A DNA stretch of 64,000 bases, from contig NZ_JALZ01000005.1 of the NCBI RefSeq assembly GCF_000521785.1, positions 124,001 to 188,000 of the forward strand, in the 5' to 3' direction. A program made the position numbers and the translations under genes. Position 1 is the stretch's first letter. Every line of letters starts with the position of its first letter. Of the stretch, positions 9,046-62,780 are shown piece after piece. The stretch is from Roseivivax halodurans JCM 10272. Lineage in GTDB: Bacteria > Pseudomonadota > Alphaproteobacteria > Rhodobacterales > Rhodobacteraceae. Below the pieces are notes generated by a model. The model was given only the letters and a program-made list of their open reading frames with translations. It was not told where the DNA came from and did no database searches.

Positions 9046-9108
9046 TTCTTCTTGGGAAAAATACTCCGGGGTGAATTGGCCGAATGGCCAAGAGGGGCAG
9101 CGCCCCTC
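9046..9108 (+). repeat. Dispersed TTCTTCTTG element, copy 1, with two hairpins
   Basis: TTCTTCTTG at 9046-9054, an AAATACTCC core, then CGGGG to 9071. A small hairpin TTGGCC-GAAT-GGCCAA (9076-9091) and a strong one GAGGGGC-AGC-GCCCCTC (9092-9108) follow. The element begins 12 nt after the GST stop codon, in the same sense, in the convergent gap with the flavoprotein gene. Six related copies occur at 23827, 35261, 39690, 51871, 60142 and 62743. Confidence 0.75.
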
Positions 9109-10300
9109 ACCCGTCGTGCAGGGCAGCGTGACGCCCGGCCCAGAGCCCGGTCGCGAGACAGGCGGTGAGGAGGTAGCCGCCTGTCGGAGCCTCCCAGTCC
9201 AGCATCTCGCCCGCGGCGAAGGTGCCCGGCCGCGCGGCGAGTTCGAGCCCTTCGGTGAGACCGTCCCACCGGAGCCCGCCCGCCACCGAGATCGCCTCGT
9301 CGAGCGGCGCGAGCCCCCGGTGCGGCACCGACAGCGCCTTCAGGAGCGAAGCCAGCGCCTCCGGCTCGCGCGTCAGCGGCCGGGCGCACTCCATGACCAG
9401 CGCCCGCGCCGCCGGCGGGAGCCGCGCCGCCTTGCGCAGCCGGTTCGACGCGCTGTCCTTGGCCGGTCCCTTGCGAAGCCGCGCCTCGAGCATCTGCACC
9501 TCGACATCCGGCGCGAGATCGAGCTCCAGCGGGGCGCCTTCTCGGAGCGCGGGCGAGAGCGGATAGAGCCCGCCTCCCTCGAGCCCGCGCTCCGAGATCA
9601 CCACCTCGCCGCGAGAGGCGAGCGCGCCGGCGCGCAGGCCGATGTTCTTCAGCGGCGACCCGAGATGCGGCTCCATATGCGGCGACCACTCCACCCGCAG
9701 CCCGGCATTGGCCGGGGTGAAGGGCGCGACCGGCGCGCCGAGATCGCCGACCGGACCGGTCCAGTGCCCGTCCGATCCAAGCCGCGCCCAGCTCGCCCCG
9801 CCGCAGGCAAGGACCGTCACGCGCGGGGCGATCCGGCACTCCCCGTCCGGCGTCTCGAAGCGGGCGAGATCCCCGTCCCAGCCGCTCCAGCTCCAGCGCG
9901 TCCGGGTCTCGAGCCCGAGCCCTGCGAGCCGCGCGAGCCATGCGCGCAGCAGGGGCGAGGCCTTCATCGCCTCCGGAAAGACGCGGCCCGTCGAGCCTGC
10001 GAAGACGGGCTGACCGAGCCCCTCCGCCCAGGTCGCGACCGCCTCCGGCGGCAGCGCCTCGATCATCGGGCGCAGGCAGGGCGCGGCCTCACCGTAGGCG
10101 GCAAGGCAGGTCTCGACGTCCTCGGCCTTGGTCAGGTTCAGCCCCGACTTGCCCGCCATCAGGAATTTCCGCGCGAGGCTCGGCTTCTGCTCGGTCAGCA
10201 GCACCTTGCGGCCCGCGGAAAGCAGCGCGTCCGCGGCCATCAGCCCGGCCGGTCCTCCGCCGATCACCAGCGCATCGACGCTCTCTCGGGTGTCGGTCAT
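9107..10300 (-). CDS. NAD(P)/FAD-dependent oxidoreductase, HI0933 / TIGR03862 flavoprotein family
   Basis: 397 residues. The N-terminal FAD-binding Rossmann motif DALVIGGGPAGLMAADAL (residues 9-26) is followed by KSGLNLT, a family hallmark. The C-terminal FAD motif GTFAAGEMLDWEAPTGGYLL lies around 360-380. The family is conserved but of unproven reaction. The start at 10300 gives the complete GxGxxG strand. Its start codon overlaps the region upstream of the divergent HNH gene. The stop codon lies inside the hairpin of the dispersed element. Confidence 0.88.
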   Translation of the reverse strand: MTDTRESVDALVIGGGPAGLMAADALLSAGRKVLLTEQKPSLARKFLMAGKSGLNLTKAEDVETCLAAYGEAAPCLRPMIEALPPEAVATWAEGLGQPVFAGSTGRVFPEAMKASPLLRAWLARLAGLGLETRTRWSWSGWDGDLARFETPDGECRIAPRVTVLACGGASWARLGSDGHWTGPVGDLGAPVAPFTPANAGLRVEWSPHMEPHLGSPLKNIGLRAGALASRGEVVISERGLEGGGLYPLSPALREGAPLELDLAPDVEVQMLEARLRKGPAKDSASNRLRKAARLPPAARALVMECARPLTREPEALASLLKALSVPHRGLAPLDEAISVAGGLRWDGLTEGLELAARPGTFAAGEMLDWEAPTGGYLLTACLATGLWAGRHAALHDG

Positions 10301-10343
10301 GGGCGGCTTGATCTCCGGTCGGATTGAGCCACCCTCATCTCCC

Positions 10344-10667
10344 GTGAGCGAGACAAGTGCAACGGCAGCGAAGGACGGCAATCCCGTCTGCGCGCTCTGC
10401 GGTCGAGAGATCCCGCCGCACGTGCGGCAGAGCTGGCACCATCTCGTCCCCAAGCTCAAGGGCGGCAAGGGCGGACCGGTCGTCCTGCTGCACCAGATCT
10501 GCCACAACGAGATCCACACGACCTTCACGGAAGGAGAGCTCGCGCGAGAGTTCAACACGGTCGAGGCTCTCCGTGCCCATCCGCGCATGGCGGGGTTCCT
10601 GGCCTGGGTCGCCAAGCGCCCCCCGGGCTTTCACAAGCGCAGCGCCGGCGGCCGGCGCAAGCGCTGA
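10344..10667 (+). CDS. Small HNH endonuclease-like protein
   Basis: 107 residues if the GTG at 10344 is the start; an ATG at 10299 would add 15 residues but overlaps the divergent neighbour's start. The sequence has CALCGREIPP (zinc-knuckle half), WHHLVPKLKGGK (catalytic HH) and LLHQICHNEIH (N...H of HNH, with further zinc ligands). The tail is basic (KRSAGGRRKR), as in DNA-binding HNH proteins. It is a stand-alone domain without a phage or toxin context. Function unknown beyond probable nuclease activity on nucleic acid. Confidence 0.75.
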   Translation: MSETSATAAKDGNPVCALCGREIPPHVRQSWHHLVPKLKGGKGGPVVLLHQICHNEIHTTFTEGELAREFNTVEALRAHPRMAGFLAWVAKRPPGFHKRSAGGRRKR

Positions 10668-10682
10668 GCGCGCGTCGGTGGG

Positions 10683-12920
10683 TCAGGCGAAGGTCACGAA
10701 CCGGTCGAAAGGCATCTCGCGAAGCCGCTGCCCGGTCGCGGCGAAGATCGCATTGGCAAGCGCCGGCGCCGCGGGCGGGACCGGCGGCTCTCCGATGCCA
10801 CGGATCGCAGGGCCGTTCTCGAGCCCGCGCACGTCCATTCGCGGCGCCTGATGCAGGCGCATGCCCGGCGCGTTGTCGTAGTTGCGTTGCCGAGCCATGC
10901 CGCCCGCATAGGTGATCTCGGAATTCATGGCGTGGCCAAGACCCCAGATCACCCCGCCCTGCACCTGGTTCTCGAAATTCACGGGATCGACGATCCGCCC
11001 CACATCCGCGGCGACCCAGACCGTCTCGATGCGGATCCCGGCCTCGGTCATCGCGACCTCCACGATCTCGGCGCAGGGCACCCCGAAGCTCTCGACCAGC
11101 GCGACGCCTCGCCCGCGCCCGTTCCCGCCCGGACCGGTCCAGTCCGACATCTCGCCCACGGCCTCGAGCACTTTTCGGTGATGGTCGACGCGGCACATCG
11201 AGAGGCGGGCCTCGAGCGGGTCGAGCCCGGCCGCGTGGATCAGCTCGTCGAGAAAGGCCTCCCCGAAGAAACCCGCCGTCGAGGCGCCGACGGACCGCCA
11301 CGAGGACACCGGCGCGAGCCCCGGCACCGCATAGGCCCGCACCCGCATGTTCCCGATCCCGTAGCTCGCGTTCCAGAGACCGGCGGGCAGTTGCAGGTCG
11401 GGTCCCGGCAGCGGCATCCCGAGCCGCGAGAATTGCGAGGCGGTGGGCTAGGGCGCGGCGATCTGCACGTCGAGCACGTCGATCCGTCCGTCCCGGATCG
11501 CCCCCCGCGCCCGCGCCATGGCGATCTGGCGGGGAAAATCGAGCGCGAAATCCTCCTCGCGCGAGAAGGTCAGCTTCACCGGCGTGCCCGGCACCTGCGC
11601 CGCGATCTCGGCCACCGCGCGGATGTTCTCGAATTCGAGGCGATGCCCGAAACTGCCGCCTGCTGCGACGTTGTGGAAGATCACGTCCTCCGCAGATACG
11701 TCAGCCGCCTCGGCCGCGACGTCCTGCAGGAAGCGCGGCATCTGGTGCGCCGCCCAGATCTTGAGCGTTCCGTCCTCCATGAGGGCGGTGGCGTTGAGCG
11801 GCTCCAGCGGCTGGTGCGCCACGTAAGGCGCGCGGTACTCCGCCTCGATCGTTTCGGCGCCGTCGGGGGCCGCCTCCACGTCGCCGTCGTGCCGCCACTC
11901 CTTGTCGAGCAGATCCTCGGTGAACGCCTCGGAAAGCGCCGCCCAATGCCCTTCCTGCTCGGCGGGGTAGGGCGCGGCCTCCCACTCGCAGGTCACGGCG
12001 TGGGCCGCCTTCATCGCGGTCCAGCTGTTGTTCGCAACGACCGCCAATCCGCCGCCGATCTCGAGCACATGCGTGACGCCCGGCATCGCCTCGGCGGCAC
12101 TCGCGTCATAGCTTGCCAGCCCCGCGCGGGTCGGGCTCAGACGCACCGCCGCATGCACCATGCCCGGCAGCGTGACGTCGATCCCGTATTCCTGCGTGCC
12201 GGTGGACTTCGCCACGATGTCGAGCCGCTGCATGGGCGTGCCGATCAGCCGCCATTCGGACGGCGCCTTCAACGCCACATCGGTCACGGGCTCCATCACC
12301 GCCGCGCGTGCCGCGAGCGCGGTATAGGGCCGCCTCTCGCCACCGGGCAGGATCACCGCGCCCGCCTCGGTGGAAAGGTCCGCGCGCGCGACACCCGCCT
12401 CTTTCGCCGCCGCTTCCTTCAGCGTCTCACGCGCCACCGCGCCGGCGACGCGCAGCTTCTCCCAGCTGTCGGGCACGGAAGAGGAGCCGCCAGTGACCTG
12501 CACGCCGAGCATCTTGATCGCGCCCGACATCACGTCGCGCACGGTCTCGGCCATCAGGCTGCGATCGGTGGAGCGGAAGGGCGCGCTCTCGTCCGAAAGA
12601 GCGCGATTCCAGTAGGCGGGGGAGGGCGGGCCGAAGGCGGTCTCGAACCCGTCCATCCCGAGGTCCATCTCCTCGGCGATCAGCAGCGCCTGCATCGAGG
12701 TCGCGCCCTGTCCGAGATCGGCATGGGGCGTGATCAGGGTGATCCGCTCCGGCCCGACGATGACCCACGGGTTGAACGTGGCCTCTCCCTCCGCCAGCCC
12801 GTCTTTCAGCGGATTCGCGTCCGGGCGCCGCACCGCCCAGGTGCCGAAAGCGACGCCGCCCGCCAAAGCCGCCGCGCCGACCATAAGCGCGCGGCGGGTG
12901 ATCCGACCCGCCCGGCTCAT
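10683..12920 (-). pseudogene. iorB: Isoquinoline 1-oxidoreductase-type molybdopterin subunit, interrupted by one in-frame TAG
   Basis: The reading frame is continuous for 745 codons except for a single TAG at 11448-11450 (codon 491). Sequence on both sides belongs to the same family: before it, GGSFGHRLEFENIRAVAEI and similar; after it, DPLEARL and IRGIGEPPVPPAAPALANA. The N-terminus has a twin-arginine-like signal (ITRRALMVGAAALAGG), so the enzyme would be exported with its Mo cofactor. Intact relatives hydroxylate N-heterocycles or oxidise aldehydes together with the [2Fe-2S] subunit encoded just upstream. With the stop, the C-terminal third, including Mo-site residues, is lost unless the base is a sequencing error or is read through. 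Confidence 0.85.
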
Positions 12921-13387: not shown

Positions 13388-13570
13388 CGCCGAACCCTCC
13401 CAGACCGGAAGGAGGGGCAGCGGCTTCGCTTGTCAAGCAAGCCCGTGCGTCGAAGCCGCGAACGCTTCGAATCCGAGCAAATTCGAGCGTCCGAGCCGTC
13501 GCGGATTAAACCTTTGGGAACGCGTTGGCCGTAGGACCTGAAGCGGACAGAAATGTGCGGGGATTGCACA

Positions 13571-23688: not shown

Positions 23689-23765
23689 GCCGCCTTAGCT
23701 CAGTAGGTTAGAGCGCTAGATTGTGGATCTAGAGGTCCCCCGTTCGAGCCGGGGAGGCGGTACCA
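23689..23765 (+). tRNA. tRNA-His (GTG), alphaproteobacterial A73 type
   Basis: 77 nt with encoded CCA. The acceptor GCCGCCT pairs with AGGCGGT, giving a G1-U72 wobble. The discriminator is A73 and the base before G1 is T, so there is no genomic G-1. Anticodon stem CTAGA/TCTAG encloses TTGTGGA, giving GTG. These departures from the universal G-1:C73 rule are known for an alphaproteobacterial subgroup with a matching divergent histidyl-tRNA synthetase. Confidence 0.95.
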
Positions 23766-23826
23766 TTCCTTCAGACGGAAACCCGACCGGGCAGGGGCTC
23801 CGCGCCGCCGCGCGTTCCGCGCGTCT

Positions 23827-23852
23827 CCCCGGGATATTTACGTCAAGAAGAA
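23827..23852 (-). repeat. Dispersed TTCTTCTTG element, copy 4
   Basis: On the minus strand TTCTTCTTG, ACGT, AAATATCCC, GGGG. It begins 2 nt after the stop codon of the DUF6476 gene and is in the same sense. The sequence after it (GACGCGCGGAACGCGCGG) can form a short GC hairpin. The tRNA-His gene lies on the other side. Confidence 0.75.
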
Positions 23853-23854
23853 GA

Positions 23855-24157
23855 TCACGGCGCGGTCTCGATCGCCACGCGCTGGCGGATCTCGCCGGTC
23901 AGGCGGTCGAAGATCAGGATCTCGTCGGCATCCGTCACGACGGCGTACCATTCCTCGCCCTGCGTCAGTGCCGTGGCGCGGGCGCCGCCCGGCAGGGAAA
24001 TCTCCGCGGGGAGCGGCATCGAGGGCGCGCGCAGGCGGATGACAAGCGCGGCCGCCACCGTTAGAACCCCGCCGATCATCACGATCGTCAGCACCGTCAC
24101 CAGCGCCTTGATGAACCGCAGATCTGGGGCGCCGGGCTCTTTTGGAGTTTCGTCCAT
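23855..24157 (-). CDS. DUF6476 family single-pass membrane protein
   Basis: 100 residues from the ATG at 24157. One transmembrane helix at about 18-40 (ALVTVLTIVMIGGVLTVAAA) is followed by a periplasmic beta-rich domain with LPGGARATALTQGEEWYAVV and ILIFDRLTGEIRQRV, which resembles a single PQQ/WD-like blade. The family is restricted to Rhodobacteraceae and relatives; function unknown. Its start codon overlaps the divergent rluD start within a shared CATG. Confidence 0.72.
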   Translation of the reverse strand: MDETPKEPGAPDLRFIKALVTVLTIVMIGGVLTVAAALVIRLRAPSMPLPAEISLPGGARATALTQGEEWYAVVTDADEILIFDRLTGEIRQRVAIETAP

Positions 24158-25211
24158 GTCCACCCGCACCTTCCGCGTCACGATTCAGGCGGCGCCGCCC
24201 GCCCGCCTTGATAAGGCGCTGGCCCGCGATGTGCCAGAGGAGGCCGGCCTGTCGCGCACGCGACTCGCGCGGCTCATCGCGGACGGGGCGGTGACGCGGG
24301 CGGGGGCGGCGCTGACCGATGCCAAAGGGGCTGTCGCGGAGGGCGACGAGATCGAGATCGCCGTCCCCGAGGCCGCCGAGGTCGAGACCGCGCCGGAGGA
24401 CATCCCGCTGCGGATCCTGCACGAGGACGACGACCTCTGCGTCGTGATGAAACCCGCGGGCATGGTGGTGCATCCCGCGCCGGGCAGTCCGTCGGGGACG
24501 CTAGTGAACGCGCTCCTGCACCATTTCGGGGAAGACCTTTCGGGCATCGGCGGCGAGAAGCGGCCCGGCATCGTGCACCGGATCGACAAGGATACGAGCG
24601 GGCTTCTGGTAGTGGCGAAAACCGACCGCGCGCATCACGGGCTCGCCGAGCAGTTCGAGGCGCATACGGTCGAGCGGCGCTACCTCGCGCTCTGCCACGG
24701 CGTTCCTGATACCGGCGATCCGCGCTTGCGCGGCACCCGCGGCGTGTCGATCGAGCCGGGCGCGGTCGTGAAGGTCACGAGCGGCATCGGGCGCCACCGC
24801 ACCGACCGGCAGCGGCAGGCGGTCTATTTCGGCACCGGACGCCGCGCGGTGACGCGGGCGCAGGTGATCGAGAGCTTCGGTGCGCCGCCCGCCGTGGCGC
24901 TCATCGAGTGCCGGCTCGAGACCGGGCGCACGCACCAGATCCGCGTACATCTGACCCATGCGGGGCACGCCCTCGTGGGTGACCCGGTCTACGGCACCAA
25001 CCGCAAGGTGCCGCAGAAGGCTCTGCCCAGCCCCGCCGCCGCGGCGCTGAGAGCGTTTCCCAGACAGGCGCTCCATGCCGCCTCGCTCGGTTTCGAACAC
25101 CCCGTCACCGGCGAAACGATGCGGTTCGAGGCCGAGCTTCCGCAGGACATGGCCGAGCTGATCACGCTTCTGCGAACAGGTGGGCTCGAAACACACAGCA
25201 CGAGTGCTTGA
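24156..25211 (+). CDS. rluD: 23S rRNA pseudouridine synthase, RluD/RluA family
   Basis: 351 residues. An N-terminal S4-like RNA-binding domain (LDKALARDVPEEAGLSRTRL) precedes the catalytic domain with VVMKPAGMVVHP and the nucleophile motif GIVHRIDKDTSGLLVVAKTD (D in RIDKDT). TGRTHQIRVHL, a family signature, is present. It isomerises uridines in 23S rRNA helix 69 or a related site; the RluD assignment is by length and S4 domain. The start at 24156 has GGAG 9 nt upstream. Confidence 0.92.
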   Translation: MSTRTFRVTIQAAPPARLDKALARDVPEEAGLSRTRLARLIADGAVTRAGAALTDAKGAVAEGDEIEIAVPEAAEVETAPEDIPLRILHEDDDLCVVMKPAGMVVHPAPGSPSGTLVNALLHHFGEDLSGIGGEKRPGIVHRIDKDTSGLLVVAKTDRAHHGLAEQFEAHTVERRYLALCHGVPDTGDPRLRGTRGVSIEPGAVVKVTSGIGRHRTDRQRQAVYFGTGRRAVTRAQVIESFGAPPAVALIECRLETGRTHQIRVHLTHAGHALVGDPVYGTNRKVPQKALPSPAAAALRAFPRQALHAASLGFEHPVTGETMRFEAELPQDMAELITLLRTGGLETHSTSA

Positions 25212-31172: not shown

Positions 31173-31221
31173 GAGTTTCGAACTCGCGTCACTCCTCCTC
31201 CCATCCGTGACGCGACCCTCT

Positions 31222-31248
31222 GGCGGGCTGTCAAAGCCCGCCATTTTT
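31222..31248 (+). terminator. Rho-independent terminator after the first phasin
   Basis: GGCGGGCT-GTCAA-AGCCCGCC followed by ATTTTTG; an 8-bp stem with a clear T run. Confidence 0.88.
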
Positions 31249-31955: not shown

Positions 31956-31990
31956 ACGGCAGGCTCCGGATCCGGGGCCTGCCGTTTTTC
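31956..31990 (+). terminator. Rho-independent terminator after the second phasin
   Basis: ACGGCAGGC and GCCTGCCGT arms around a CCGGATCCGG inner stem, followed by TTTTTC. Confidence 0.88.
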
Positions 31991-35260: not shown

Positions 35261-35309
35261 TTCTTCTTGACGAAAATATCCCGGGGAGCGCGAGGGGCTG
35301 GCCCCTCGC
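35261..35309 (+). repeat. Dispersed TTCTTCTTG element, copy 3 (opposite sense to flanking genes)
   Basis: TTCTTCTTG (35261-35269), ACGA, AAATATCCC, GGGG, then a hairpin GCGAGGGG-CTGG-CCCCTCGC (35290-35309 region). It sits between the ligase and PuuB genes, which read in the other direction; the only one of seven copies that is antisense to its upstream gene. Confidence 0.72.
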
Positions 35310-35325: not shown

Positions 35326-36690
35326 TCAGACGTTCAGAAGCAGATGCTCCCGCTCCCACGGGCTGATAACCTGCAGGAATTCCTCGTATTCGGCCCGCTT
35401 CACGATCGAGTAGACGCGCGCGAATTCCGGCCCCAGCACCTCGTGCAGCGCGGCCGCCCCGTCGAAGAGGTCGAGCGCCTGGCCGAGGACCCGCGGGATG
35501 TCGCCCTCGCCCTCGTAGGCGTCCCCCTTGAACTGCTTGGAGGGCCAGCGCTCCTCCATCAGCCCGAGATAGCCGCAGGCGAGCGACGCCGCGATGCCGA
35601 GATAGGGATTGCAATCCATGCCCGCGAGGCGGTTCTCGATCCGGCGGCTCTCGGGGCCCGAGAGCGGCACGCGGATGCCCGTGGTGCGGTTGTCCCGCGC
35701 CCATTCGAGGTTGATTGGGGCGGCGTGGTCGCGCACGTAGCGGCGGTAGGAATTGACGTAGGGCGCAAGCACCGCGATCGCCGAGGGCAGGTGCGTCTGC
35801 ATCCCCCCGATGAAGTGGAAGAACGCGTCGGTCTCGCCGCCTTGCGGGCCCGAGAAGATCGACTTTCCAGTCTCGATGTCGTTGATCGAGTGGTGGATGT
35901 GCATCGCCGATCCCGGCTCGTCCGCGATCGGCTTGGCCATGAAGGTCGCGAAGCATTCGTGCCGGAGCGCCGCCTCGCGGATCAGCCGCTTGAAGAAGAA
36001 CACCTCGTCGGCGAGCTTCACCGGATCTCCGTGCCGCAGGTTGATCTCGAGCTGGCCGGCGCCGCCCTCCTGCGTGATGCCGTCGATCTCGAAACCCTGT
36101 GCCTCGGCGAAATCGTAGATGTCGTCGATCACCGGGCCGAACTCGTCCACCGCGGTCATCGAATAAGCCTGACGCGCCGCCGCGGGCCGGCCCGAGCGGC
36201 CCATCATCGGCTTGATGTCCTGGGCTGGATCGGTGTTGCGCGCGACGAGGTAGAATTCCATCTCGGGCGCCACGACCGGCTGCCAGCCCTGCTGGCGGTA
36301 GAGGTCGACCACGCGCTTCAGCACGTTGCGCGGCGCGCATTCCACCGGCCGGCCCTTGCGGTCAAAGGCATCGTGGATCACCTGCAGCGTCCAGTCCCCG
36401 GTCCAGGGGGCGGCGGTCGTCGTCGCCATGTCCGGATAGAGGATCATGTCGCGCTCGATGAAGCCCTCTTCCTCGTCCGCCGCCTCGCCCCAGTCGCCGG
36501 TGATGGTCTGGTAGAAGATCGAATCCGGCAGGTGGAAATACTTCATGCGCGCGAATTTCGACGCGGGCACCGCCTTGCCCCGGGCGATCCCGGGCAGGTC
36601 CGAGATGATGCATTCGACCTCGTCGAGCCGGCGCCCCTCGAGATAGGCGCGTGCCGCCTCGGGAAGGGCCACTGTCCAGTCCTCGCTCAT
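35326..36690 (-). CDS. Glutamine synthetase family protein (PuuA-type gamma-glutamyl-amine ligase)
   Basis: 454 residues. The glutamine-synthetase catalytic domain is seen as QEGGAGQLEINLRHGDPVKL (metal-ligand E residues), then GSAMHIHHSI (GxxMHxHxS) and ESRRIENRLAGMDCNPYLGI (R residues for phosphate/glutamate). GS relatives of this type join glutamate to an amine such as putrescine, using ATP. Overlaps the amidotransferase upstream by 4 nt. It shares the fold but little sequence with the second ligase at 37491. Confidence 0.88.
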   Translation of the reverse strand: MSEDWTVALPEAARAYLEGRRLDEVECIISDLPGIARGKAVPASKFARMKYFHLPDSIFYQTITGDWGEAADEEEGFIERDMILYPDMATTTAAPWTGDWTLQVIHDAFDRKGRPVECAPRNVLKRVVDLYRQQGWQPVVAPEMEFYLVARNTDPAQDIKPMMGRSGRPAAARQAYSMTAVDEFGPVIDDIYDFAEAQGFEIDGITQEGGAGQLEINLRHGDPVKLADEVFFFKRLIREAALRHECFATFMAKPIADEPGSAMHIHHSINDIETGKSIFSGPQGGETDAFFHFIGGMQTHLPSAIAVLAPYVNSYRRYVRDHAAPINLEWARDNRTTGIRVPLSGPESRRIENRLAGMDCNPYLGIAASLACGYLGLMEERWPSKQFKGDAYEGEGDIPRVLGQALDLFDGAAALHEVLGPEFARVYSIVKRAEYEEFLQVISPWEREHLLLNV

Positions 36691-38871: not shown

Positions 38872-39678
38872 TCAGCGCACGAGGATCGGACGGATCCGCA
38901 GCCTCGCGCGCCGGGTTTGCGGAAGATGACGGTTGAGCCGCCGGTTCGCCAGCCCGAAGAGGCCGATCACCGTGAGCGTCAGCAGGATGAAGTATCCCGC
39001 TAGGATCGGGTAAGGCACGAACGGATTGAACGTCTTGTCGGCGAAGTAGCTCGCGTAATAGAGCGCGTCGCCCTTCTGCTGCCGCGCCGGGAAGCCCGAG
39101 AAGAAGACGAGCGCGGTGGCGTGGAAGAGGAAGATCGCCTCGTTGGTATAGGCGGGCCAGGCGAGCCGCAGCATCGTCGGCCAGGTGATGCGCCGGAACT
39201 TGCTCCAGCCGTGGAAGCCGTAGGCGTCCGCCGCCTCCATGTCGCCCTTCGGCACCGAGAGGACCGCACCGTGGAAGATCTCGCCCGAATAGGCGGCGGT
39301 GTTCAGGAAGAGGACGATCGTCGCCCCGAGCCAGGCCGCGGTGAAGGGGTCGAAGAACGGGTAGGCCGATTTCAGCGACAGGAAGGCGAAATAGGCGAAG
39401 AAGAACTGGATGAAGAGCGGCGAGCCCCGGAAGACGAAGATGAACCATTCGGACGGCTTGCGCAGCCACGGGTTCCGCGCCGCCTTGCCGAGCGCGACGG
39501 CGGTGGCGAGCAGGAACCCCGAGGCGAGCGCGAGCGTGCCGAAATAGATGTTCCAGATCATGCCCGACCCGATCAGCGTGACCTGCTGGCACAGCGTGAA
39601 GTCCGAGCGCGGCAGCAGCCGCTCCCCGATCCCGAGGCTGCGCAGGCCGTAATCGGCGATGGTCTCCCAGCAGCTCAT
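38872..39678 (-). CDS. Polar amino-acid ABC transporter permease (HisM/ArtM type)
   Basis: 268 residues with about five transmembrane helices. The cytoplasmic EAA loop reads AADAYGFHGWSKFRRITWPTM, which contacts the ATPase. The start at 39678 (MSCWETIADYG) follows the dispersed-element copy; earlier in-frame Met codons lie inside that element and give a non-family N-terminus. Acts with the permease, binding protein and ATPase upstream in the same direction. Confidence 0.87.
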   Translation of the reverse strand: MSCWETIADYGLRSLGIGERLLPRSDFTLCQQVTLIGSGMIWNIYFGTLALASGFLLATAVALGKAARNPWLRKPSEWFIFVFRGSPLFIQFFFAYFAFLSLKSAYPFFDPFTAAWLGATIVLFLNTAAYSGEIFHGAVLSVPKGDMEAADAYGFHGWSKFRRITWPTMLRLAWPAYTNEAIFLFHATALVFFSGFPARQQKGDALYYASYFADKTFNPFVPYPILAGYFILLTLTVIGLFGLANRRLNRHLPQTRRARLRIRPILVR

Positions 39679-39689
39679 GCGCGCACGCT

Positions 39690-39729
39690 CCGGTGGCCGC
39701 CGGCGCATGAGTGTTTTTGCCAAGAAGAA
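39690..39729 (-). repeat. Dispersed TTCTTCTTG element, copy 7 (degenerate)
   Basis: On the minus strand TTCTTCTTG (39729-39721), GCAA, AAACACTCA, then a weak CCGG...CCGG hairpin. It lies between the two permease genes of one ABC transporter, sense to both. Confidence 0.6.
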
Positions 39730-39769
39730 GCAGGGGCGGGGGCGCGCCGAATATGGCCGGGTTGCGTGG

Positions 39770-40654
39770 TCATGCCGCCGCCTTTCTTTGCGCCTCGCCC
39801 GCGACGGTCGCCTGCCCGTGGGTCAGGCGCGTCATCAGGCGCGCGAGCGCGATCTCGGAGACCCTCGTGAAGGCGAGGTAGAAGACCAGGAGCGCGAGGA
39901 AGTACCACATCCGCCAGTCACCGTGCGGATAGTCTGTGAATTGCGGCGTCTTCGTCCCGCCGAGCTCGCGCGCCCAGTAGACGATGTCCTCGACGCCGAG
40001 CAGGAACAGGAGCGGCGTCGCCTTGATCAGCACCATCCAGAGGTTCGACAGGCCCGGCAGGGCGTAGACCCACATCTGCGGCACGAGGATGCGCCGGAAG
40101 GTCTGGCGCGGGGTCATGCCGTAGGCTTCCGCGGTCTCGATCTGCGCGTGCGGGACCGCGCGCATGGCGCCGAAGAGCACGTTCGCCGCGAAGGCGCCGA
40201 AGACGATGGCGAAGGTCAGCACCGCAAGTCCGAAGCCGTAGCTCTCGTGCACCCATTGCGGCGCCGAGGAGAGCGGCAGCTTGGCTTCGTTGCAGACCAC
40301 GAAGTCGTTGCCCTGCCAGATCGGCTGGTTCCAGCCCGGGCAGAGCGCCTTGTGGCGCAGGAACTCGAACGCCTGGTCGAGCGCGATCACGAAAAAGAGG
40401 AAGAAGGCGATGTCCGGAACACCCCGGACGATCGCGATGTAGCCCTTGCCGAGCCACGAGAGCGGCGCGATCTGGCTGCGCGCCAGCACCGCCCCGCCGA
40501 AGCCGAAGGCGAGTGCAGCCGGCGCGGTGATGGCGAGCAGCAGCAGCACCGTGCCGAAGGCACCGTAGAACGCCATGTGCTTGCCCGTCGTCAGGTAACA
40601 GGCAAGCCAGGCGAGGCCGTCGAGCGCGGCGGGATCTGAGCAGGAGCCAAGCAT
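39770..40654 (-). CDS. Polar amino-acid ABC transporter permease (HisQ/ArtQ type)
   Basis: 294 residues. Transmembrane helices at about 28-52, 70-92, 140-165, 195-215 and 255-275 and an EAA loop ETAEAYGMTPRQTFRRILVP. An insertion of ~45 residues between helices 2 and 3 (ALCPGWNQPIWQGNDFVVCN, with two cysteines) is longer than in E. coli HisQ and probably periplasmic; the pair could form a disulfide. 44 bp after the binding-protein gene. Confidence 0.85.
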   Translation of the reverse strand: MLGSCSDPAALDGLAWLACYLTTGKHMAFYGAFGTVLLLLAITAPAALAFGFGGAVLARSQIAPLSWLGKGYIAIVRGVPDIAFFLFFVIALDQAFEFLRHKALCPGWNQPIWQGNDFVVCNEAKLPLSSAPQWVHESYGFGLAVLTFAIVFGAFAANVLFGAMRAVPHAQIETAEAYGMTPRQTFRRILVPQMWVYALPGLSNLWMVLIKATPLLFLLGVEDIVYWARELGGTKTPQFTDYPHGDWRMWYFLALLVFYLAFTRVSEIALARLMTRLTHGQATVAGEAQRKAAA

Positions 40655-50343: not shown

Positions 50344-51636
50344 ATGGCAAACGTGGTCGTCGTGGGCGCTCAGTGGGGCGACGAAGGCAAGGGCAAGATC
50401 GTCGATTGGCTGTCCGAACGCGCGGACGTGATCGCCCGCTTCCAGGGCGGGCACAACGCGGGTCACACGCTCGTCGTTGGCGGCGAGGTCTACAAGCTGC
50501 ACGCGCTGCCCTCGGGCGTGGTGCGCTCGGGCAAGCTCAGCGTCATCGGAAACGGCGTCGTCCTCGATCCCTGGCATCTCGTGAAGGAGATCGAGGGCAT
50601 TCGCGGGCAGGGGGTCGAGATCACCCCCGAGACGCTGATGATCGCCGAGAACACGCCGCTCATCCTGCCCTTCCACGGCGAGCTCGACCGCGCCCGCGAA
50701 GCGCAGAACTCCGTCGCCAAGATCGGCACGACGGGACGCGGTATCGGCCCCGCCTACGAGGACAAGGTCGGTCGCCGGGTGATCCGCGTCTCCGACCTGT
50801 CGGACGACCGCACGCTCGAGGTCCGCGTCGACCGGGCGCTGGTGCACCACAACGCGCTCCGCGCCGGGCTCGGCCTCGATCCCGTCGACCGCGACGCGCT
50901 GATCGCCGAGCTGCGCGCCATCGCGCCCGAGATCCTGCAATACGCCGCGCCCGTCTGGAAGGTGCTGAACGAAAAGCGCCGCGCCGGCCGCCGTATCCTC
51001 TTCGAGGGCGCGCAGGGCGCGCTCCTCGACATCGATTTCGGCACCTATCCCTATGTCACCTCCTCGAACGTGATTGCGGGGCAGGCGGCCACGGGCACCG
51101 GCATCGGCCCCTCGTCGATCGATTTCTGCCTCGGCATCGTGAAGGCCTACACGACCCGCGTCGGCGAGGGGCCGTTCCCGACCGAGCTTCACGACGAGGA
51201 CGGCAACAGGCTCGGCGAGAGGGGCCACGAATTCGGCACCACCACTGGCCGCAAGCGCCGCTGCGGCTGGTTCGACGCCTGCCTCGTCAAGCAGAGCTGC
51301 GCGATCTCGGGCGTCACCGGCATCGCCCTGACCAAGCTCGACGTGCTCGACGGCTTCGACACGCTGAAGATCTGCACCGGCTACGAACTCGACGGCAAGC
51401 ACATGGATTACCTGCCTACTGCCGCCGACCAGCAGGCCCGCTGCACGCCGATCTACGAGGAGCTGCCCGGCTGGTCGCAATCGACCGAAGGCGCGCGCTC
51501 CTGGGCCGACCTTCCCGCCGAGGCGATCAAGTACGTCCGCCGCGTCGAGGAGCTCATCGAATGCCCCGTGGCGCTGCTCTCGACCTCACCCGAACGTGAC
51601 GACACGATTCTCGTCACGGACCCATTTGCCGATTGA
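50344..51636 (+). CDS. purA: Adenylosuccinate synthase
   Basis: 430 residues. [20 protein letters not shown] (GTP P-loop, catalytic D and K), [25 protein letters not shown] and [13 protein letters not shown] are intact. It converts IMP, aspartate and GTP to adenylosuccinate, the committed AMP step. Stop and the following DUF2842 start share one base (TGATG). Confidence 0.97.
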
Positions 51637-51860
51637 TGGCAGAGCTTTCGCACAAGTCCCGCCGGCGTCTCTCGCTGCTCGTCCTGATCGTGGGGCTGCC
51701 GGTCTACATCGTGGTGGCCTCCTCGGTCGTCACCGCCTTCGGCCGCCCCCCGATCCTCGTCGAGCTGCTGATCTACGTCGTCCTCGGCCTGCTCTGGGCC
51801 CTTCCGCTGAAATTCGTCTTCAAGGGCGTCGGCCGCGAGCAGCCGCAGGACAGGGACTGA
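51636..51860 (+). CDS. DUF2842 family small membrane protein
   Basis: 74 residues, two transmembrane helices (LSLLVLIVGLPVYIVVASSV and LVELLIYVVLGLLWALPLKF). Basic N-terminus SHKSRRR, cytoplasmic tail FKGVGREQPQDRD. Conserved downstream of purA in this family; function unknown. Translationally coupled to purA by the TGATG overlap. Confidence 0.8.
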   Translation: MAELSHKSRRRLSLLVLIVGLPVYIVVASSVVTAFGRPPILVELLIYVVLGLLWALPLKFVFKGVGREQPQDRD

Positions 51861-51870: not shown

Positions 51871-51916
51871 TTCTTCTTGAGGGAAATATCCTGGGGGTGC
51901 GGGGGCGGAGCCCCCG
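51871..51916 (+). repeat. Dispersed TTCTTCTTG element, copy 2, with hairpin
   Basis: TTCTTCTTG (51871-51879), AGGG, AAATATCCT, GGGG, then CGGGGGC-GGA-GCCCCCG (51900-51916). Begins 11 nt after the DUF2842 stop, same sense. Confidence 0.75.
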
Positions 51917-58033: not shown

Positions 58034-58969
58034 TCAGTAGCCGGCGTCCCGGTCGACGCGGCCGACCAGCGGCGCGCCGGCCTCGCACCGGGCGATGTTG
58101 TCGGCGATGGCCTGCGAGGCGGTGGAAACCCGCGTCTCGGAGGCGATATGGGGAGTGACCGTGACCTTCGGATGCGCCCAGAACGGGTGCTCCGCGGGCA
58201 GCGGCTCGGTGCGGAAGACGTCGAGCGTCGCATGTCCAAGCCGCCCGTCATCGAGCGCCGCGAGCAGCGCGTCGTCGTCGATCAGCGGCCCGCGGCCCGG
58301 ATTGATGACGACCGCGCCGGGGGCGAGCTTCGAGATCGTCTCGGCATTGAGGACGTTCTCGGTCTCGGGCGTGTTCGGCAGCAGCATCACCACGATCTCG
58401 GCCCCGTCGAGCGCCGGCATCAGACCTTCGGGCCCCGCGTGGCAGGCGATCCCGGCGAGATCCTTCGGGCTCCGGCTCCAGCCGCTGAGGTCGAAGTCGA
58501 ACCGCGCGAGCGCCTCGGCGCAGGCACTGCCGAGCGCGCCGAGCCCGAGGATCGTGACCCGTCGCTCGGGTGCCAGCGGCGGCGGACGGTGATCCCAGAC
58601 GTGATCGGGGTTCACGATATGTGCGTCCATCCCGAGATGATGGCGCAGGACGTGCCCCGCGACCCATTCGACCATGCCACGGGTCAGCCCCTCGTCGTCG
58701 ACCATCCGGACGAGCGGGGCCTTCAGGGTGTCGTTGCCGACGATGGTCTCGACCCCGGCCCAGAGGTTCAGAACCGCCTTCAGCCGCGTGTAGGGCGTGA
58801 AGTCCTGCAGCGGGCTCTTCGGCGCGTAGATGACGTAGTCGACCTCTGCGGGATCAGCCTCGGTCACGAGCCGCGTCTCGGGCGCGACCTTCGCCAGCGC
58901 GTCGCGCAGCGGGCGTTCGTACTCGGCCCACATGTCGGGACCGGCGGCGAAGAGGATCGTGAGGGTCAT
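58034..58969 (-). CDS. ghrA: Glyoxylate/hydroxypyruvate reductase A (2-hydroxyacid dehydrogenase)
   Basis: 311 residues. NAD(P) Rossmann motif [19 protein letters not shown], substrate arginine region [16 protein letters not shown], catalytic E and H in [15 protein letters not shown] and [11 protein letters not shown]. It reduces glyoxylate or hydroxypyruvate with NADPH. Starts in a 4-nt overlap with the rodA stop, so it is likely read from the mre operon. Confidence 0.9.
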
Positions 58970-60105
58970 CGGGGCCTGTGGATATGCGCGCTCTGGACGA
59001 GGCCGAAGGCGACCATGAGGACGAGCATCGCCGAGCCACCGTAGCTCACGAGCGGCAGCGGCACGCCCACCACGGGGGCGAGGCCCATCACCATCGACAT
59101 GTTCACCGCGAAGAACAGGAAGAAGGTCAGCCCGATCCCGAGCGTCAGGAGGGAGGAATAGCGATCGCGGTTCTGGATCGCCGAGATGATGCAGAAGAGC
59201 AGGACCAGCACGTAGAGGGTCAGGAGCGATAGCCCGCCGACGAAGCCGAACTCCTCGGCGAGGGTATTGAAGATGAAGTCGGTGTGCTTTTCCGGCAGGA
59301 AGTTCAGCCGCGACTGCGTGCCCTGCATGAAGCCGCGCCCGGTCCAGCCGCCCGATCCCATGGCGATCTTGGCCTGAGTGATGTGATAGCCCGCGCCGAG
59401 CGGATCCGAGGAGGGGTCGAGGAAGGTGTCGATGCGCCGGAACTGGTAATCCTTCAGGAGCTGCCAGTCTGTGCCGCGCGACTTGAAGACGGTCGAGATC
59501 CCGCCGATCCCGGCCGCGATCACAGCGCCGAAATAAGCCCAGTGCACTCCGGCGAGGAACATCATGAGGCCGCCGCCGGCGACAAGCAGGATCGCCGTGC
59601 CGAGATCTGGCTGCGTCAGGACGAGCCCGGTCGGCACGAGAATGATCAGCACCGGCAGGATCACCCAGAGCGGCCGGGAGGTCTTCTTCATCGGCAGCCA
59701 GTCGTAATAGGCGGCGAGCACCATCACGAGCGCGATCTTCATGAGCTCGGAAGGTTGCAGCCTCATGAAGCCGAGATCGATCCAGCGCTGCGCGCCCATC
59801 CCGACCGTTCCGAAGAACTCCACCATCACGAGCAGCCCGAGGCTGACGAGATAGGCGACGACGGACATGTTGCGCCAGAACCAGATCGGCACCAGAGCGA
59901 CGATGAACATCAGCGTGACTCCGAGCACGTAGCGCTTCATCTGCGGCTCGGCCCAGGGGGTCATGGACCCTCCCGCGACCGAATAGAGCATGACGAACCC
60001 GACGCCCGCGACCGCGCTGAGCAGCACGACCAGCGGCCAGTTGAGGTAGAGCACCTTGCGCCACCCGCCCGGCACCGTCTTCACGGTGTATTCGAGATAG
60101 CTCAT
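58966..60105 (-). CDS. rodA: Rod shape-determining peptidoglycan glycosyltransferase RodA
   Basis: 379 residues, ten transmembrane helices. SEDS family signatures QRWIDLGFMRLQPSELMKIA (around 115-134), PDLGTAILLVAGG with the conserved D near 170s, and GLAPVVGVPLPLVSYGGSAM near the C-terminus. It polymerises lipid II glycan strands with PBP2. 133 bp after mrdA, a gap that holds dispersed-element copy 5. Confidence 0.95.
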   Translation of the reverse strand: MSYLEYTVKTVPGGWRKVLYLNWPLVVLLSAVAGVGFVMLYSVAGGSMTPWAEPQMKRYVLGVTLMFIVALVPIWFWRNMSVVAYLVSLGLLVMVEFFGTVGMGAQRWIDLGFMRLQPSELMKIALVMVLAAYYDWLPMKKTSRPLWVILPVLIILVPTGLVLTQPDLGTAILLVAGGGLMMFLAGVHWAYFGAVIAAGIGGISTVFKSRGTDWQLLKDYQFRRIDTFLDPSSDPLGAGYHITQAKIAMGSGGWTGRGFMQGTQSRLNFLPEKHTDFIFNTLAEEFGFVGGLSLLTLYVLVLLFCIISAIQNRDRYSSLLTLGIGLTFFLFFAVNMSMVMGLAPVVGVPLPLVSYGGSAMLVLMVAFGLVQSAHIHRPR

Positions 60106-60141
60106 CGCCACCCCTCGCGGAGCATCGCGCGGGCTGCGGGT

Positions 60142-60179
60142 GCCGGAGCTTCCGGCGGGGATATTTCCGTCAAGAAGAA
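60142..60179 (-). repeat. Dispersed TTCTTCTTG element, copy 5, in the mre operon
   Basis: On the minus strand TTCTTCTTG (60179-60171), ACGG, AAATATCCC, then hairpin GCCGGA-AGC-TCCGGC (60156-60142). Between mrdA and rodA, same sense. Confidence 0.75.
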
Positions 60180-60238
60180 GGCCGGGCGCGGGGTGGGGCG
60201 CGTCACCGAAGCGGGGTGGGGCAGGACTGTCGCTCTGG

Positions 60239-62182
60239 TCATGCGCGGCTCGTACCGCTGGCGAGAGGCATCGAGCGGCGCTCGCGCAGCCGCTTCTGCA
60301 ACTCCTCGATCTGGCCACGATCTGCGCTCGGATAGGCCTCGAGCGGCGGGTCGCCCTCGTAGAGTGCCTGCAGGGTCACGTCCCGCGCGATCGGCGCCGC
60401 GGCCGAGGAGCCGCCGCCGCCATGCTCGACGATGGTCGCGACCGCGATGCGCGGATTGTCGTAGGGCGCGAAATTGACGAAGAGCCCGTGGTCGCGGCGC
60501 TTCCACGGCAGGTCCTCGTTGCGCGTCACACCGCGCGCGCGCTCCGCCGCGGTGATGTTGCGCACTTGGCTCGTGCCGGTCTTGCCCGCCATGCGCATTT
60601 CCTCGGCTTCGATGCGTGACCGGTAGGCGGTGCCGCGAGTGCTGTTGGAGACGTCGAACATCGCCTTCTGCATCCAGCGCAGATGCGTCGGATCGATGTC
60701 GAGCGGCTCGCCGCCGCGCGAGGGCTCCTCGACACCGTCGATGGACTTCACCAGCCGCGGCGAGATCGTGCGCCCGGTGGCGAGCCGCGCCGCCATCACC
60801 GCGAGCTGCAGCGGCGAGGTCAGCACGTCGCCCTGGCCGATCGAACAGTTCACCGTATCGCCGATGCGCCATTCCTGCCCCCAGCGCTCGCGCTTCCAGG
60901 CCTTGTCGGGCATGATCCCTTCGCCCACCGCCGACATGGGCACGTCGTGCGCCATGCCGAGCCCAAGCTTGCGGCCCATCTCGGCGATCTGGTCGATGCC
61001 GACCCGCAGCGCGATCTCGTAGAAATAGACGTCGCAGGACTGCATCAGGGCATCCTCGACATTCATGTGCCCGTGCCCTGCGCGTTTCCAGCAATGGAAG
61101 CGGCGCGAGCCGACCTTGAGATGACCGGGGCACCAGACGGTGTTGCCGGGTCCGGTGACCCCGGCCTCGAGCGCGGCGAGCGCGGTCACCATCTTGAAGC
61201 ACGAGCCGGGCGGGTAGAAGCCCTGCACCGTCTTCGACACCAGCGGCGCGCGCTCGTCGGCCTGCAGCGCGCCGTAATCGTCGTAGGAGATGCCCCGGAC
61301 GAACTTGTTCGGATCGTAGCCCGGGGCCGAGACCATGGCCTTCAGGTCGCCATGCTCGAGATCCATGACCACGACCGATGCGCTCTCGTCGCCGAGCCGG
61401 GCATGGATGTAGTCCTGCAGATCGGAATCGACCGAGAGCTGCAGATCGGCGCCCGCCTCGCCCTCGCGGCGGTCGAGCTCGCGCATGATGCGGCCCGCGG
61501 CGTTGACCTCGACCCGCTTGGAGCCCGCGCGGCCGCGCAGGATGTCCTCGTATTTGGTTTCGACGCCGATCTTGCCGAACTGGAACCGCGGGATCCGCAG
61601 CACCGGGTCGGGATCCTCGTAACGGGCAAGGTCGCTTTCGGACACTGGCTGCACGTAGCCCACCACATGGGCGAAGATCTCGCCGTGCGGGTAGTGCCGC
61701 GAGAGTCCGACCTCGGGGTTCACCCCCGGCAGGGCCGGCGCATTGGCGGCGACGCGGCTCACCGCCTCCCAGCTCACCTGGTCGGCGACCGCGATGGGCA
61801 GGAACGGGGCGGATCGGCGCATCTCCGCGACCGCACGCTCGACCTCGCCGGGGTCGAGATCCACGAGCTCGGCCAGCCGCGCCAGCGTGTCGTCGAGATC
61901 GCCGGCATCCTCGCGGACCACGGTGATGCGATAGGCCGGCGTATTGGCGGCGATCACGACGCCCTTGCGGTCGAAGATCTGCCCCCGCGCCGGCGGGATG
62001 AGCCGGACGTTGATCCGGTTCTCCTCGGCCAGCAGTCGGAACTCCTCGCCCTGGTCGATCTGCATGTACCGCATGCGCATGCCGAGCACCGTGGCGAAGC
62101 CGAGCTGCATGCCGCCGAGCATCAGCCCGCGCCGCGTGATGCGGCGGGCGCTGTCGGTGTTGTCCTTGGGTGTCCGTCTCAT
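60239..62182 (-). CDS. mrdA: Penicillin-binding protein 2 (elongasome transpeptidase)
   Basis: 647 residues. One N-terminal membrane helix (about 22-40), the pedestal domain with PARGQIFDRKGVVIAANTPA, and the transpeptidase domain: nucleophile S327 in PPGSCFKMVTAL (K330), and K534 in MAGKTGTSQVR. It cross-links new peptidoglycan in the lateral wall, paired with RodA. The residue after the nucleophile is Cys instead of the more usual Thr. Start overlaps the mreD stop by 4 nt. Confidence 0.95.
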   Translation of the reverse strand: MRRTPKDNTDSARRITRRGLMLGGMQLGFATVLGMRMRYMQIDQGEEFRLLAEENRINVRLIPPARGQIFDRKGVVIAANTPAYRITVVREDAGDLDDTLARLAELVDLDPGEVERAVAEMRRSAPFLPIAVADQVSWEAVSRVAANAPALPGVNPEVGLSRHYPHGEIFAHVVGYVQPVSESDLARYEDPDPVLRIPRFQFGKIGVETKYEDILRGRAGSKRVEVNAAGRIMRELDRREGEAGADLQLSVDSDLQDYIHARLGDESASVVVMDLEHGDLKAMVSAPGYDPNKFVRGISYDDYGALQADERAPLVSKTVQGFYPPGSCFKMVTALAALEAGVTGPGNTVWCPGHLKVGSRRFHCWKRAGHGHMNVEDALMQSCDVYFYEIALRVGIDQIAEMGRKLGLGMAHDVPMSAVGEGIMPDKAWKRERWGQEWRIGDTVNCSIGQGDVLTSPLQLAVMAARLATGRTISPRLVKSIDGVEEPSRGGEPLDIDPTHLRWMQKAMFDVSNSTRGTAYRSRIEAEEMRMAGKTGTSQVRNITAAERARGVTRNEDLPWKRRDHGLFVNFAPYDNPRIAVATIVEHGGGGSSAAAPIARDVTLQALYEGDPPLEAYPSADRGQIEELQKRLRERRSMPLASGTSRA

Positions 62183-62718
62183 AAGCCCAGTCCGAACCTT
62201 CCCTCCTCGCCCCGGCGCGTGCGCTTGAGCCCGAAGACGAGGTGGGTGACCGCCACGACGAGGGGATAGACGAGTATCGTCGCCGCGGTCTGCGTGAAGA
62301 GGAGCGTTGCGTTCGCGGTTGGTATTATAAGAAGAAGTTGCACGAGTTGATAGATCAGGGCCATCACGATCAGTGCGGTGGCGACCCGCGTCCATTCCAT
62401 CAGGAAGGCGGACTCGCCGCTTTGGCGCTGGCGGGTCTTGAGGCTTTCGATCGTCACGAGCGTGAGCGCCGCCCAGAGGCCGGGCGGCCGCTGCAGGACG
62501 AGATCCGCCATCAGCGCGGCCGCGGCGACCGAGAGCGCCGGGACGATCTCGGGCCGACGGAGCGCCAGAGCGAAGGTCAAAGCGGTGATGAGTTCCGGCC
62601 CGGCGATGCGCGACGGCGACATGTCCACCGGCAGAAGGCTGAAGAACATGACCGCAAGGCAGAGCCCGAAATAGAGCGCCCGCATCAGCCAGAGCTGCAG
62701 GATCGCCGCATCGATCAT
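62179..62718 (-). CDS. mreD: Rod shape-determining protein MreD
   Basis: 179 residues with about five transmembrane helices (LWLMRALYFGLCLAVMFFSL at the N-terminus; LIVMALIYQLVQLLLIIPTA near 120-140). Poorly conserved family, but position between mreC and mrdA and the length fix the call. Part of the MreCD-RodA-PBP2 complex. Preceded by dispersed-element copy 6. Confidence 0.88.
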   Translation of the reverse strand: MIDAAILQLWLMRALYFGLCLAVMFFSLLPVDMSPSRIAGPELITALTFALALRRPEIVPALSVAAAALMADLVLQRPPGLWAALTLVTIESLKTRQRQSGESAFLMEWTRVATALIVMALIYQLVQLLLIIPTANATLLFTQTAATILVYPLVVAVTHLVFGLKRTRRGEEGRFGLGL

Positions 62719-62742
62719 GGCGTCGCCCCGCGGATGTCGGTG

Positions 62743-62780
62743 GCCGGCGCCTCCGGCGGGAGTATTTCCGCCAAGAAGAA
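62743..62780 (-). repeat. Dispersed TTCTTCTTG element, copy 6, in the mre operon
   Basis: On the minus strand TTCTTCTTG (62780-62772), GCGG, AAATACTCC, then hairpin GCCGG-AGGCG-CCGGC (62757-62743). Between mreC and mreD, same sense. Confidence 0.75.

What the first reader, a model, noticed from the sequence alone, without database searches (positions are those of the whole stretch)
9046..62780. Seven copies of a dispersed intergenic element: TTCTTCTTG, 4 nt, AAATAYYCC, then a GC hairpin
Copies at 9046(+), 23827(-), 35261(+), 39690(-), 51871(+), 60142(-), 62743(-). The TTCTTCTTG part is identical in all seven and the AAATAYYCC core nearly so (copies 1-6), while the following hairpin keeps its structure but not its sequence in most copies (GGGGC-NNN-GCCCC, GCCGG-N-CCGGC), a sign of selection on RNA or DNA structure. 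Six of seven are sense to the gene before them, several begin 2-12 nt after a stop codon, and three lie inside operons. Unlike a Rho-independent terminator, the T-rich part precedes the hairpin. It could be an RNase E-type processing site with a protective stem, an attenuator, or a REP-like mobile repeat.
Basis: partly seen in the sequence, partly recalled or inferred. Interest (0 to 1): 0.75.

Follow-up and report, generated by a model that had tools for sequence, protein, structure and literature searches.

The report
Rhodobacteraceae intergenic repeats with genome-specific spelling
About 136 near-identical short DNA repeats sit just behind genes in this bacterium; its relatives carry them too, sometimes at the very same places, but each genome spells the repeat in its own uniform way, which suggests that something in each cell reads it.

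Summary
Real. All seven copies exist (shuffles none); the genome holds 136 (reversed control 0). It is a family-wide repeat: 114 of 149 family genomes match, 74 with ten or more copies; no Rfam match in the window. Copies are intergenic, hug stop codons in both orientations and are rare between divergent genes, so "six of seven sense" is small-sample chance; hairpin-bodied copies lean antisense (87 v 43): stop, hairpin, RTATTT, box. The surprise: the box is a genome-wide dialect (TTCTTCTTG here, TTCTTCTCG in congener G006), and 15 of 30 fetched G006 copies sit at sites occupied here, body class kept 15 of 15, far flanks diverged, spelling following the genome. That fits a REP-like element read by a genome-specific factor, plus turnover. 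The REP transposase family (Y1) is missing from G000 and from 69 of those 74 genomes. REP tags are not enriched in hairpin bodies; CGTC is somewhat over chance in A bodies. No description turned up in nine open-literature searches. Reader and function are inferred.

The parts
9046..9067 (+). copy 1, box + core (TTCTTCTTGG..AAATACTCC subtype)
   Evidence: 11 nt after the stop of a GST-like gene, convergent with the HI0933-like gene 9107-10300(-)
9068..9108 (+). copy 1 body, type D (two hairpins); same body in other G000 copies, G006 and a Roseovarius MAG
23831..23852 (-). copy 2, box + core (GA/ATCCC subtype)
   Evidence: 2 nt after the stop of 23855-24181(-); on the + strand it lies downstream of tRNA-His 23689-23765; not seen in the stretches after tRNA-His printed for eight congeners (not the whole gap in each)
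23794..23830 (-). copy 2 body
35261..35282 (+). copy 3, box + core; antisense, downstream of glnA (35326-36690, -)
   Evidence: same site occupied in G002, G003, G005, G006, not in G001 or G008; a cousin in G004 and G007
35283..35309 (+). copy 3 body, type B hairpin
39708..39729 (-). copy 4, degenerate box + core (2 mismatches), between two ABC permease genes
   Evidence: same site occupied in G002, G006 and, with 4 mismatches, G005; genes abut in G001, G003, G004, G007; G008 has other DNA there
51871..51892 (+). copy 5, box + core (1 mismatch)
   Evidence: 10 nt after the stop of 51636-51860(+)
51893..51916 (+). copy 5 body, type C hairpin
60158..60179 (-). copy 6, box + core, between PBP2 and rodA genes
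   Evidence: not present there in G003 or G005
60142..60157 (-). copy 6 body, A-like short hairpin
62759..62780 (-). copy 7, box + core, between mreC and the following gene (mreD by position)
   Evidence: G006 L154 has a copy at the orthologous site; G005 has two other copies in this gap and G003 none
62743..62758 (-). copy 7 body, type A (CGCCGGAGGC) extended

Best explanation
It is a REP-like, modular intergenic repeat of about 40-65 bp: an asymmetric 22-bp box (TTCTTC, a 4-base genome-specific dialect, 3 free bases, AAATAYYCC; a C stands before it in this genome) followed by one of a few G+C palindromic bodies. Shown: high copy number, intergenic position hugging stop codons, both orientations, avoidance of divergent gaps, coherent dialects, retention of many sites between congeners with respelled boxes, and gain or loss of others. 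Inferred: a sequence-specific factor encoded by each genome reads the box (as DNA, since orientation is free); when its specificity drifts, the sites it uses follow. Inferred: it acts at the ends of transcription units. In the preferred orientation of hairpin copies (stop, hairpin, RTATTT, box) the hairpin would give a stable mRNA 3' end, made by a pause or roadblock at the bound box or by RNase E at RU/AUUU, while the palindrome on DNA separates neighbouring units. How copies move is not known; the usual REP transposase is not there.
For: 136 copies, control 0. 114 of 149 family genomes match; 74 of 149 have at least 10 copies; other families of the class 0-7 per genome, reversed control 0-4. 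Dialects: G000 box 1 is TTCTTCTTG in 105 of 106 copies read, the other differing in its first base; in G006 52 of 53 matches are TTCTTCTCG; 29 of 30 G059 matches are TTCATTCTGG..ATCCC; among the places listed G150 24 of 26 TTCTTCTGTT, G049 16 of 16 TTCATCTTGC, G018 four spellings of 16, 4, 4 and 2. Orthologous sites: 15 of 30 fetched G006 loci and 7 of 30 G005 loci pair with G000 copies; body class kept 15 of 15 and 7 of 7 (random 0.53 and 0.66); body identity 0.66 and 0.70 v 0.51 for random same-class pairs; far flank 0.35 and 0.31 v 0.30 and 0.29. Position: convergent 38, antisense tandem 33, sense tandem 28, divergent 4, inside ORF, of 106; over all samples divergent 16 of 320 placed copies, while 66 of 275 background gaps are divergent. 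Hairpin copies sense 43, antisense 87, p=1.4e-4; same direction in G000 (15:29), congeners (8:22) and named genomes (18:35), not in the three of G011 (2:1). Close pairs within 300 bases: 17 with boxes facing, 2 tandem, 0 with hairpins facing; one of the last kind within 600.
Against: No reader gene, binding datum or transcript end is in hand. G005 carries a second, decayed TTGG/ATCCC-like family next to its mostly uniform TCGT/TCGG one, which looks like successive mobile waves rather than one co-evolving set. Two of seven hairpin pairs with G006 carry different body types (L132/L037, L152/L032), so re-insertion at hot sites is possible. Only part of the window's copies are shared with the congeners compared. 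Within the genus four of nine genomes have only 0-7 matches, and a wider pattern left 30 of 32 low or zero family genomes at 0-2: either they lack it or spell it beyond my patterns. Canonical terminators are only weakly rarer at gene ends with a copy (23 of 187 v 82 of 433; no class significant alone). On the antisense strand the RTATTT lies several bases after the hairpin in types B-D, poor for an intrinsic terminator. Sense RNA folds are not exceptional. Copies 6 and 7 sit inside a cell-wall gene cluster that is probably one operon, so at least that body should let transcription pass.
Confidence: 0.45

Rival explanations
1. A purely selfish REP/MITE-like repeat: successive waves of a non-autonomous mobile element, each with its own dialect set by the transposase of the day; position at 3' ends only reflects purging from genes and promoters.
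For: Presence/absence differences between congeners; several dialects in one genome (G018, G136; G011); decayed old family in G005; about 130-nt composite copies between unrelated genes; head-to-head pairs, the commonest dimer type of CGTC REPs (PMC3733652 section 6).
Against: Sites shared by G000 and G006 keep body class (15 of 15) while the boxes differ by dialect, hard for independent insertions. No Y1/RAYT gene in G000 or in 69 of the 74 genomes with at least 10 copies. Few partly decayed copies in G000: at least 100 of 136 exact. Antisense bias of hairpin copies.
Confidence: 0.33
2. A transcription terminator (bidirectional, or a roadblock type) peculiar to this family, read mainly on the strand opposite to the one the first reader read: stop, hairpin, RTATTT.
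For: Hugs stop codons on both sides; convergent gaps favoured, divergent avoided; hairpin copies antisense 87 v sense 43; canonical terminators somewhat rarer beside copies, not significantly in any class.
Against: U-run short and set off from the stem; canonical hairpin+T terminator-like sites exist in the same window, 15 found v 10.0 +- 2.8 in shuffles of 20 kb; A-body copies inside likely operons (beside mreC, between PBP2 and rodA) should not end transcription; the conserved box beyond the release point has no known role in intrinsic termination.
Confidence: 0.15
3. RNase E processing site with protective stem: on the antisense-oriented transcript RU/AUUU follows the hairpin and would be cut to leave a hairpin-capped mRNA.
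For: AAATAY is nearly invariant, i.e. RUAUUU on the other strand; R. sphaeroides RNase E sites are AU-rich, and A/U at +1 and U at +2 is the E. coli preference quoted there (PMC6238624 passages).
Against: Would not need the dialect box; sense-oriented copies (43 hairpin-bodied in tandem gaps) lack the arrangement; no G-U signature in stems.
Confidence: 0.07

Closest known systems
REP / BIME / REPIN elements (E. coli, Pseudomonas; GTAG and CGTC superfamilies)
   Same: Short extragenic palindromes, many copies, near stop codons, several classes per genome, head-to-head pairs (passages of PMC3116915 and PMC3733652; 3'-end and convergent placing of REPs recalled).
   Different: Asymmetric 22-bp box in front of an interchangeable palindrome; GTAG not enriched and CGTC only somewhat in the A bodies; Y1/RAYT transposase missing in 69 of 74 bearers; mostly singlets; box dialect differs genome-wide at retained sites.
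DUS dialects of Neisseriaceae (recalled, no call)
   Same: Short motif, often paired at gene ends, spelled uniformly within and differently between relatives, as if read by a co-evolving receptor.
   Different: Far fewer copies, hardly found inside genes, carries a palindromic body, no link to uptake shown.
Intercistronic hairpin of the R. capsulatus puf operon (mRNA decay terminator; recalled, and seen only as a reference-list entry)
   Same: Stem at gene ends in the same family, candidate mRNA 3' protector.
   Different: A single-locus element; relation to this box not tested.

Membership tests
REP (GTAG/CGTC) superfamily | short palindrome in extragenic space, many copies | tested here: met
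   136 copies in G000; 6 of 348 copies in all samples (viral contigs included) lie inside ORF calls
REP (GTAG/CGTC) superfamily | GTAG or CGTC tag, hairpin bodies | tested here: not met
   CGTC 30 of 229 (shuffled mean 39), GTAG 5 of 229 (17); presence anywhere in the first 40 bases, mononucleotide shuffles, a crude test
REP (GTAG/CGTC) superfamily | GTAG or CGTC tag, A bodies | tested here: inconclusive
   CGTC 33 of 119 (shuffled mean 22), commonest form CGCCGGAGGCGTCC; GTAG 1 of 119 (8); the stem is far shorter than the 8-9 bp given for CGTC REPs; the paper's consensus figures were not available
REPIN | partner RAYT (Y1) transposase in the genome | tested here: not met
   PF01797 in 15 of 149 family genomes; in 5 of the 74 with at least 10 copies (G015, G052, G097, G134, G141); not in G000, G010, G014, G018 or G024, which have 53-141 copies
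REPIN | inverted doublets predominate | tested here: not met
   close pairs are head to head (17 of 19) but few beside the singlets
Intrinsic terminator | hairpin immediately followed by a U run | tested here: not met
   sense strand: no U run after the hairpins read; antisense strand: RTATTT several bases past the stem in types B-D
Rfam family | match at gathering score | tested here: not met
   only tRNA in the window
REP-like repeat in the wide sense | dispersed copies between unrelated genes | tested here: met

The most novel reading that the evidence does not exclude
A family-wide bacterial punctuation mark: a site read at transcription-unit ends by an undescribed sequence-specific factor whose specificity drifts, respelling dozens of sites in place, so that each genome has its own dialect while the palindromic body class and location are inherited.
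Probability: 0.3. Interest if true: 0.8.

Novelty: new variant of a known kind. Interest (0 to 1): 0.6.

Why it matters
How short palindromic repeats spread and why cells keep them is an old open question, usually tied to RAYT transposases. Here is an abundant, family-wide case mostly without RAYT in which congeners share sites but not spelling, so gain, loss, respelling and a co-evolving reader can be separated by comparative genomics. It would also give Rhodobacteraceae annotation a missing class of gene-end marks.

Tried and rejected
RAYT-driven REPIN: Y1 transposases are absent from 69 of 74 bearers with at least 10 copies. GTAG/CGTC REP: tags not enriched in hairpin bodies; CGTC somewhat over shuffled in A bodies, 33 v 22 of 119. 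Chromosome-polarity motif (KOPS/Chi-like): 60 matches in the one-contig genome G011 show no clear strand switch by eye, though 14 of 16 between 1.44 and 2.11 Mb are on one strand. Phage element: none in 50,697 phage records for the A-body copy 7; 11 viral contigs matched, 7 of them AT-rich without a body (chance) and 4 G+C-rich with the A body, not followed up. RNA-strand signature: G.T 7 v A.C 9 among 56 mismatches in 1,326 stem positions of 148 copies; 92 A-body and 55 unscored copies left out, and the stem search itself favours Watson-Crick pairs. Sense bias of the A body in G000 (12:4) did not repeat elsewhere (34:34 over all). Known Rfam RNA: none. Papers: the nine searches listed nothing that names such a repeat in Rhodobacteraceae; only the best-ranked rows with titles and abstract starts were seen (for example 10 of 117, 12 of 87), and a R. 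capsulatus paper that holds the string TTCTTCTTG once (PMC9143464) was not opened. Of four papers I saw passages (PMC3116915, PMC6238624, PMC12306157, PMC3733652) and of the last also section 6. The library lacks most subscription journals, so a prior description may exist.

Limits. Genes were called by my own codon-usage script, not a standard annotator. Of 136 own-genome matches the tool listed 100, all exact; I read 106 distinct copies in the stretches taken plus the window (100 exact, 5 with one and 1 with two mismatches), so invariance is overstated by ascertainment and about 30 copies were not read. G006 loci were fetched with its own spelling, so the dialect difference in those pairs is by construction; that its other spelling is rare follows from comparing. 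Orthologous pairs were chosen by eye; ambiguous pairings (L141, L149, L150, L155, L156 and several G005 loci) were dropped. Congener sites overlap with G000 sites, so the sample groups are not fully independent. Pair counts use typed coordinates of listed places; G000 and G002 were entered in part, the omitted ones having no listed neighbour within 600 bases by inspection; further facing pairs in L028, L062 and G059 are not in the count. In one search one of eleven folds was a repeat by mistake.

Full report
Observation. In the whole genome (4.49 Mb) the pattern with up to two mismatches occurs 136 times, 61 and 75 by strand, against 0 for the reversed control. Rfam has no matching family in the window.

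Anatomy. I read 106 own-genome copies. Position -1 is C in 97% and the seven bases before the box are C-rich with almost no A; TTCTTCTTG and AAATA do not vary, apart from one first base and one T. Two linked subtypes exist: G at base 10 with ACTCC (56 copies) and A with ATCCC (39); the other 11 are mixed or changed. Three bases before AAATA vary more freely. After the box comes one of a few bodies: A, CGCCGGAGGC (28 of 106 by the rule), or hairpins B (GGGAGCGCGAGGGCAGAGCCCTCGC and compensated forms), C (GGGGTCCGGGGCAGAGCCCCGG and longer forms), D and E. Bodies A to D recur in other genera. Box subtype and body combine freely, so the element is a mosaic. Stem mismatches show no excess of G.T (7) over A.C (9), so neither strand is marked as the RNA.

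Distribution. 114 of 149 genomes of the family match; 74 have at least 10 copies and 27 at least 50. Within the genus five of nine genomes have 56-136 matches and four have 0-7; a wider pattern found 30 copies in G059 and 5 in G055 but 0-2 in 30 other low or zero genomes. Outside the family the search gives 0 to 7 per genome, control 0 to 4. Named bearers include Rhodovulum, Actibacterium, Roseovarius, Mameliella, Nioella, Defluviimonas and Roseivivax; of 80 titles shown, 71 name Rhodobacterales taxa, 6 are MAGs labelled only Alphaproteobacteria or Proteobacteria, and 3 carry other labels (Sphingobacteriaceae, Sphingomonadales, Bacteroidetes MAGs), two of these with no body after the core. Blastn finds similar sequences on plasmids of Leisingera, Ruegeria, Tritonibacter and Paracoccus; the Ruegeria one, the only one read, is spelled TTCTTCTAAC..AAATATCCC with body B; a Rhodovastum (Acetobacteraceae) plasmid carries core and body B without the box.

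Place and orientation. In G000 38 copies lie between convergent genes, 33 antisense and 28 sense between tandem genes, 4 between divergent genes, and 3 fall inside called ORFs, of 106. Background gaps of at least 60 bases in the named loci: 66 divergent, 47 convergent, 162 tandem of 275. Copies hug the stop codon on whichever side faces them: sense hairpin copies in tandem gaps start a median 13.5 bases after the stop; antisense ones leave 47 bases from box end to stop, including the hairpin. Over all samples hairpin-bodied copies in tandem gaps are 43 sense and 87 antisense (p=1.4e-4; G000 15:29, congeners 8:22, named genomes 18:35, G011 2:1; some congener sites are orthologous to G000 sites, so the groups are not fully independent); A-bodied copies are 34:34. 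Close pairs within 300 bases are 17 facing, 2 tandem, 0 the other way; one of the last kind appears within 600.

Dialects and orthology. Within a genome the box is uniform or falls into a few uniform spellings; between genomes it differs. At the glnA site five genomes of the genus carry the element, four (G000, G002, G003, G005) spelled TTCTTCTTG and one (G006) TTCTTCTCG; G004 and G007 have a further cousin (TCGGACCAAAAATACCTC), and G001 and G008 have nothing similar. Of 30 G006 loci fetched (of 53 matches) 15 are at G000 sites; of 30 G005 loci (of 72) 7 are. Body class agrees in all 22 pairs, body sequence is closer than in random same-class pairs, far flanks are near random, and the spelling is the genome's. 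A respelled box at an inherited site is what a co-evolving reader would leave; conversion between 22-bp boxes with unrelated flanks and bodies seems unlikely (inference). Against a simple story, the copy near tRNA-His was not seen in eight congeners, the copy between PBP2 and rodA is absent from the two congeners compared, the permease-gap copy is absent from four congeners whose genes abut there, and G005 holds a decayed second family. So copies are both gained or lost and kept.

Mechanism. I put most weight on a REP-like element with a DNA-level reader and a role at gene ends, less on pure selfishness, and less again on a terminator or RNase E site alone. The terminator test was weak: canonical hairpin-T signals follow 23 of 187 gene ends with a copy and 82 of 433 without. 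Copies between PBP2 and rodA and beside mreC suggest that not all copies stop transcription.

Known kinds. REPs share place and form, but the transposase test fails and the tag test fails for hairpin bodies, with CGTC somewhat over chance in A bodies (passages of PMC3733652 and PMC3116915). The main texts of the GTAG/CGTC and RepRanger papers hold no mention of Rhodobacter, Paracoccus or Ruegeria, though the former says that CGTC families occur in all alphaproteobacterial orders; their figures and supplements were not available. I therefore file it as a new variant of a known kind.

Noticed in passing
L043, L059, L072, L087 (own genome): About 130-nt composite repeats: the box, a C- or B-type hairpin, a second hairpin and a GAGCGCGC..GCGCGCTC palindrome, between unrelated genes, in L059 and L072 shared up to the next gene's stop codon.
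   Followed up: partly
G005: A scattered, decaying TTGG/ATCCC-like family beside a mostly uniform TCGT/TCGG family: looks like a retired dialect.
   Followed up: partly
L307 1501-1536: Acetobacteraceae plasmid (Rhodovastum) with the AAATATCCC core and body B, identical over 36 bases, but without the TTCTTC box.
   Followed up: no
L192, L194, L196, L198: Four G+C-rich viral-collection contigs of 10-14 kb carry an A-body copy, two of them (L194, L198) within 1.5 kb of a contig end; could be prophage, gene transfer agent or host DNA.
   Followed up: no
window 39676-39790: Permease gene pair: genes abut with overlapping ATGA in G001, G003, G004 and G007, but are about 86-101 bases apart with the element in G000, G002, G005 and G006, an ATGA standing at both ends of the added stretch.
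   Followed up: partly
window 31956-31985 and 31221-31243: Ordinary hairpin+T terminator-like sites are present in the same window.
   Followed up: no
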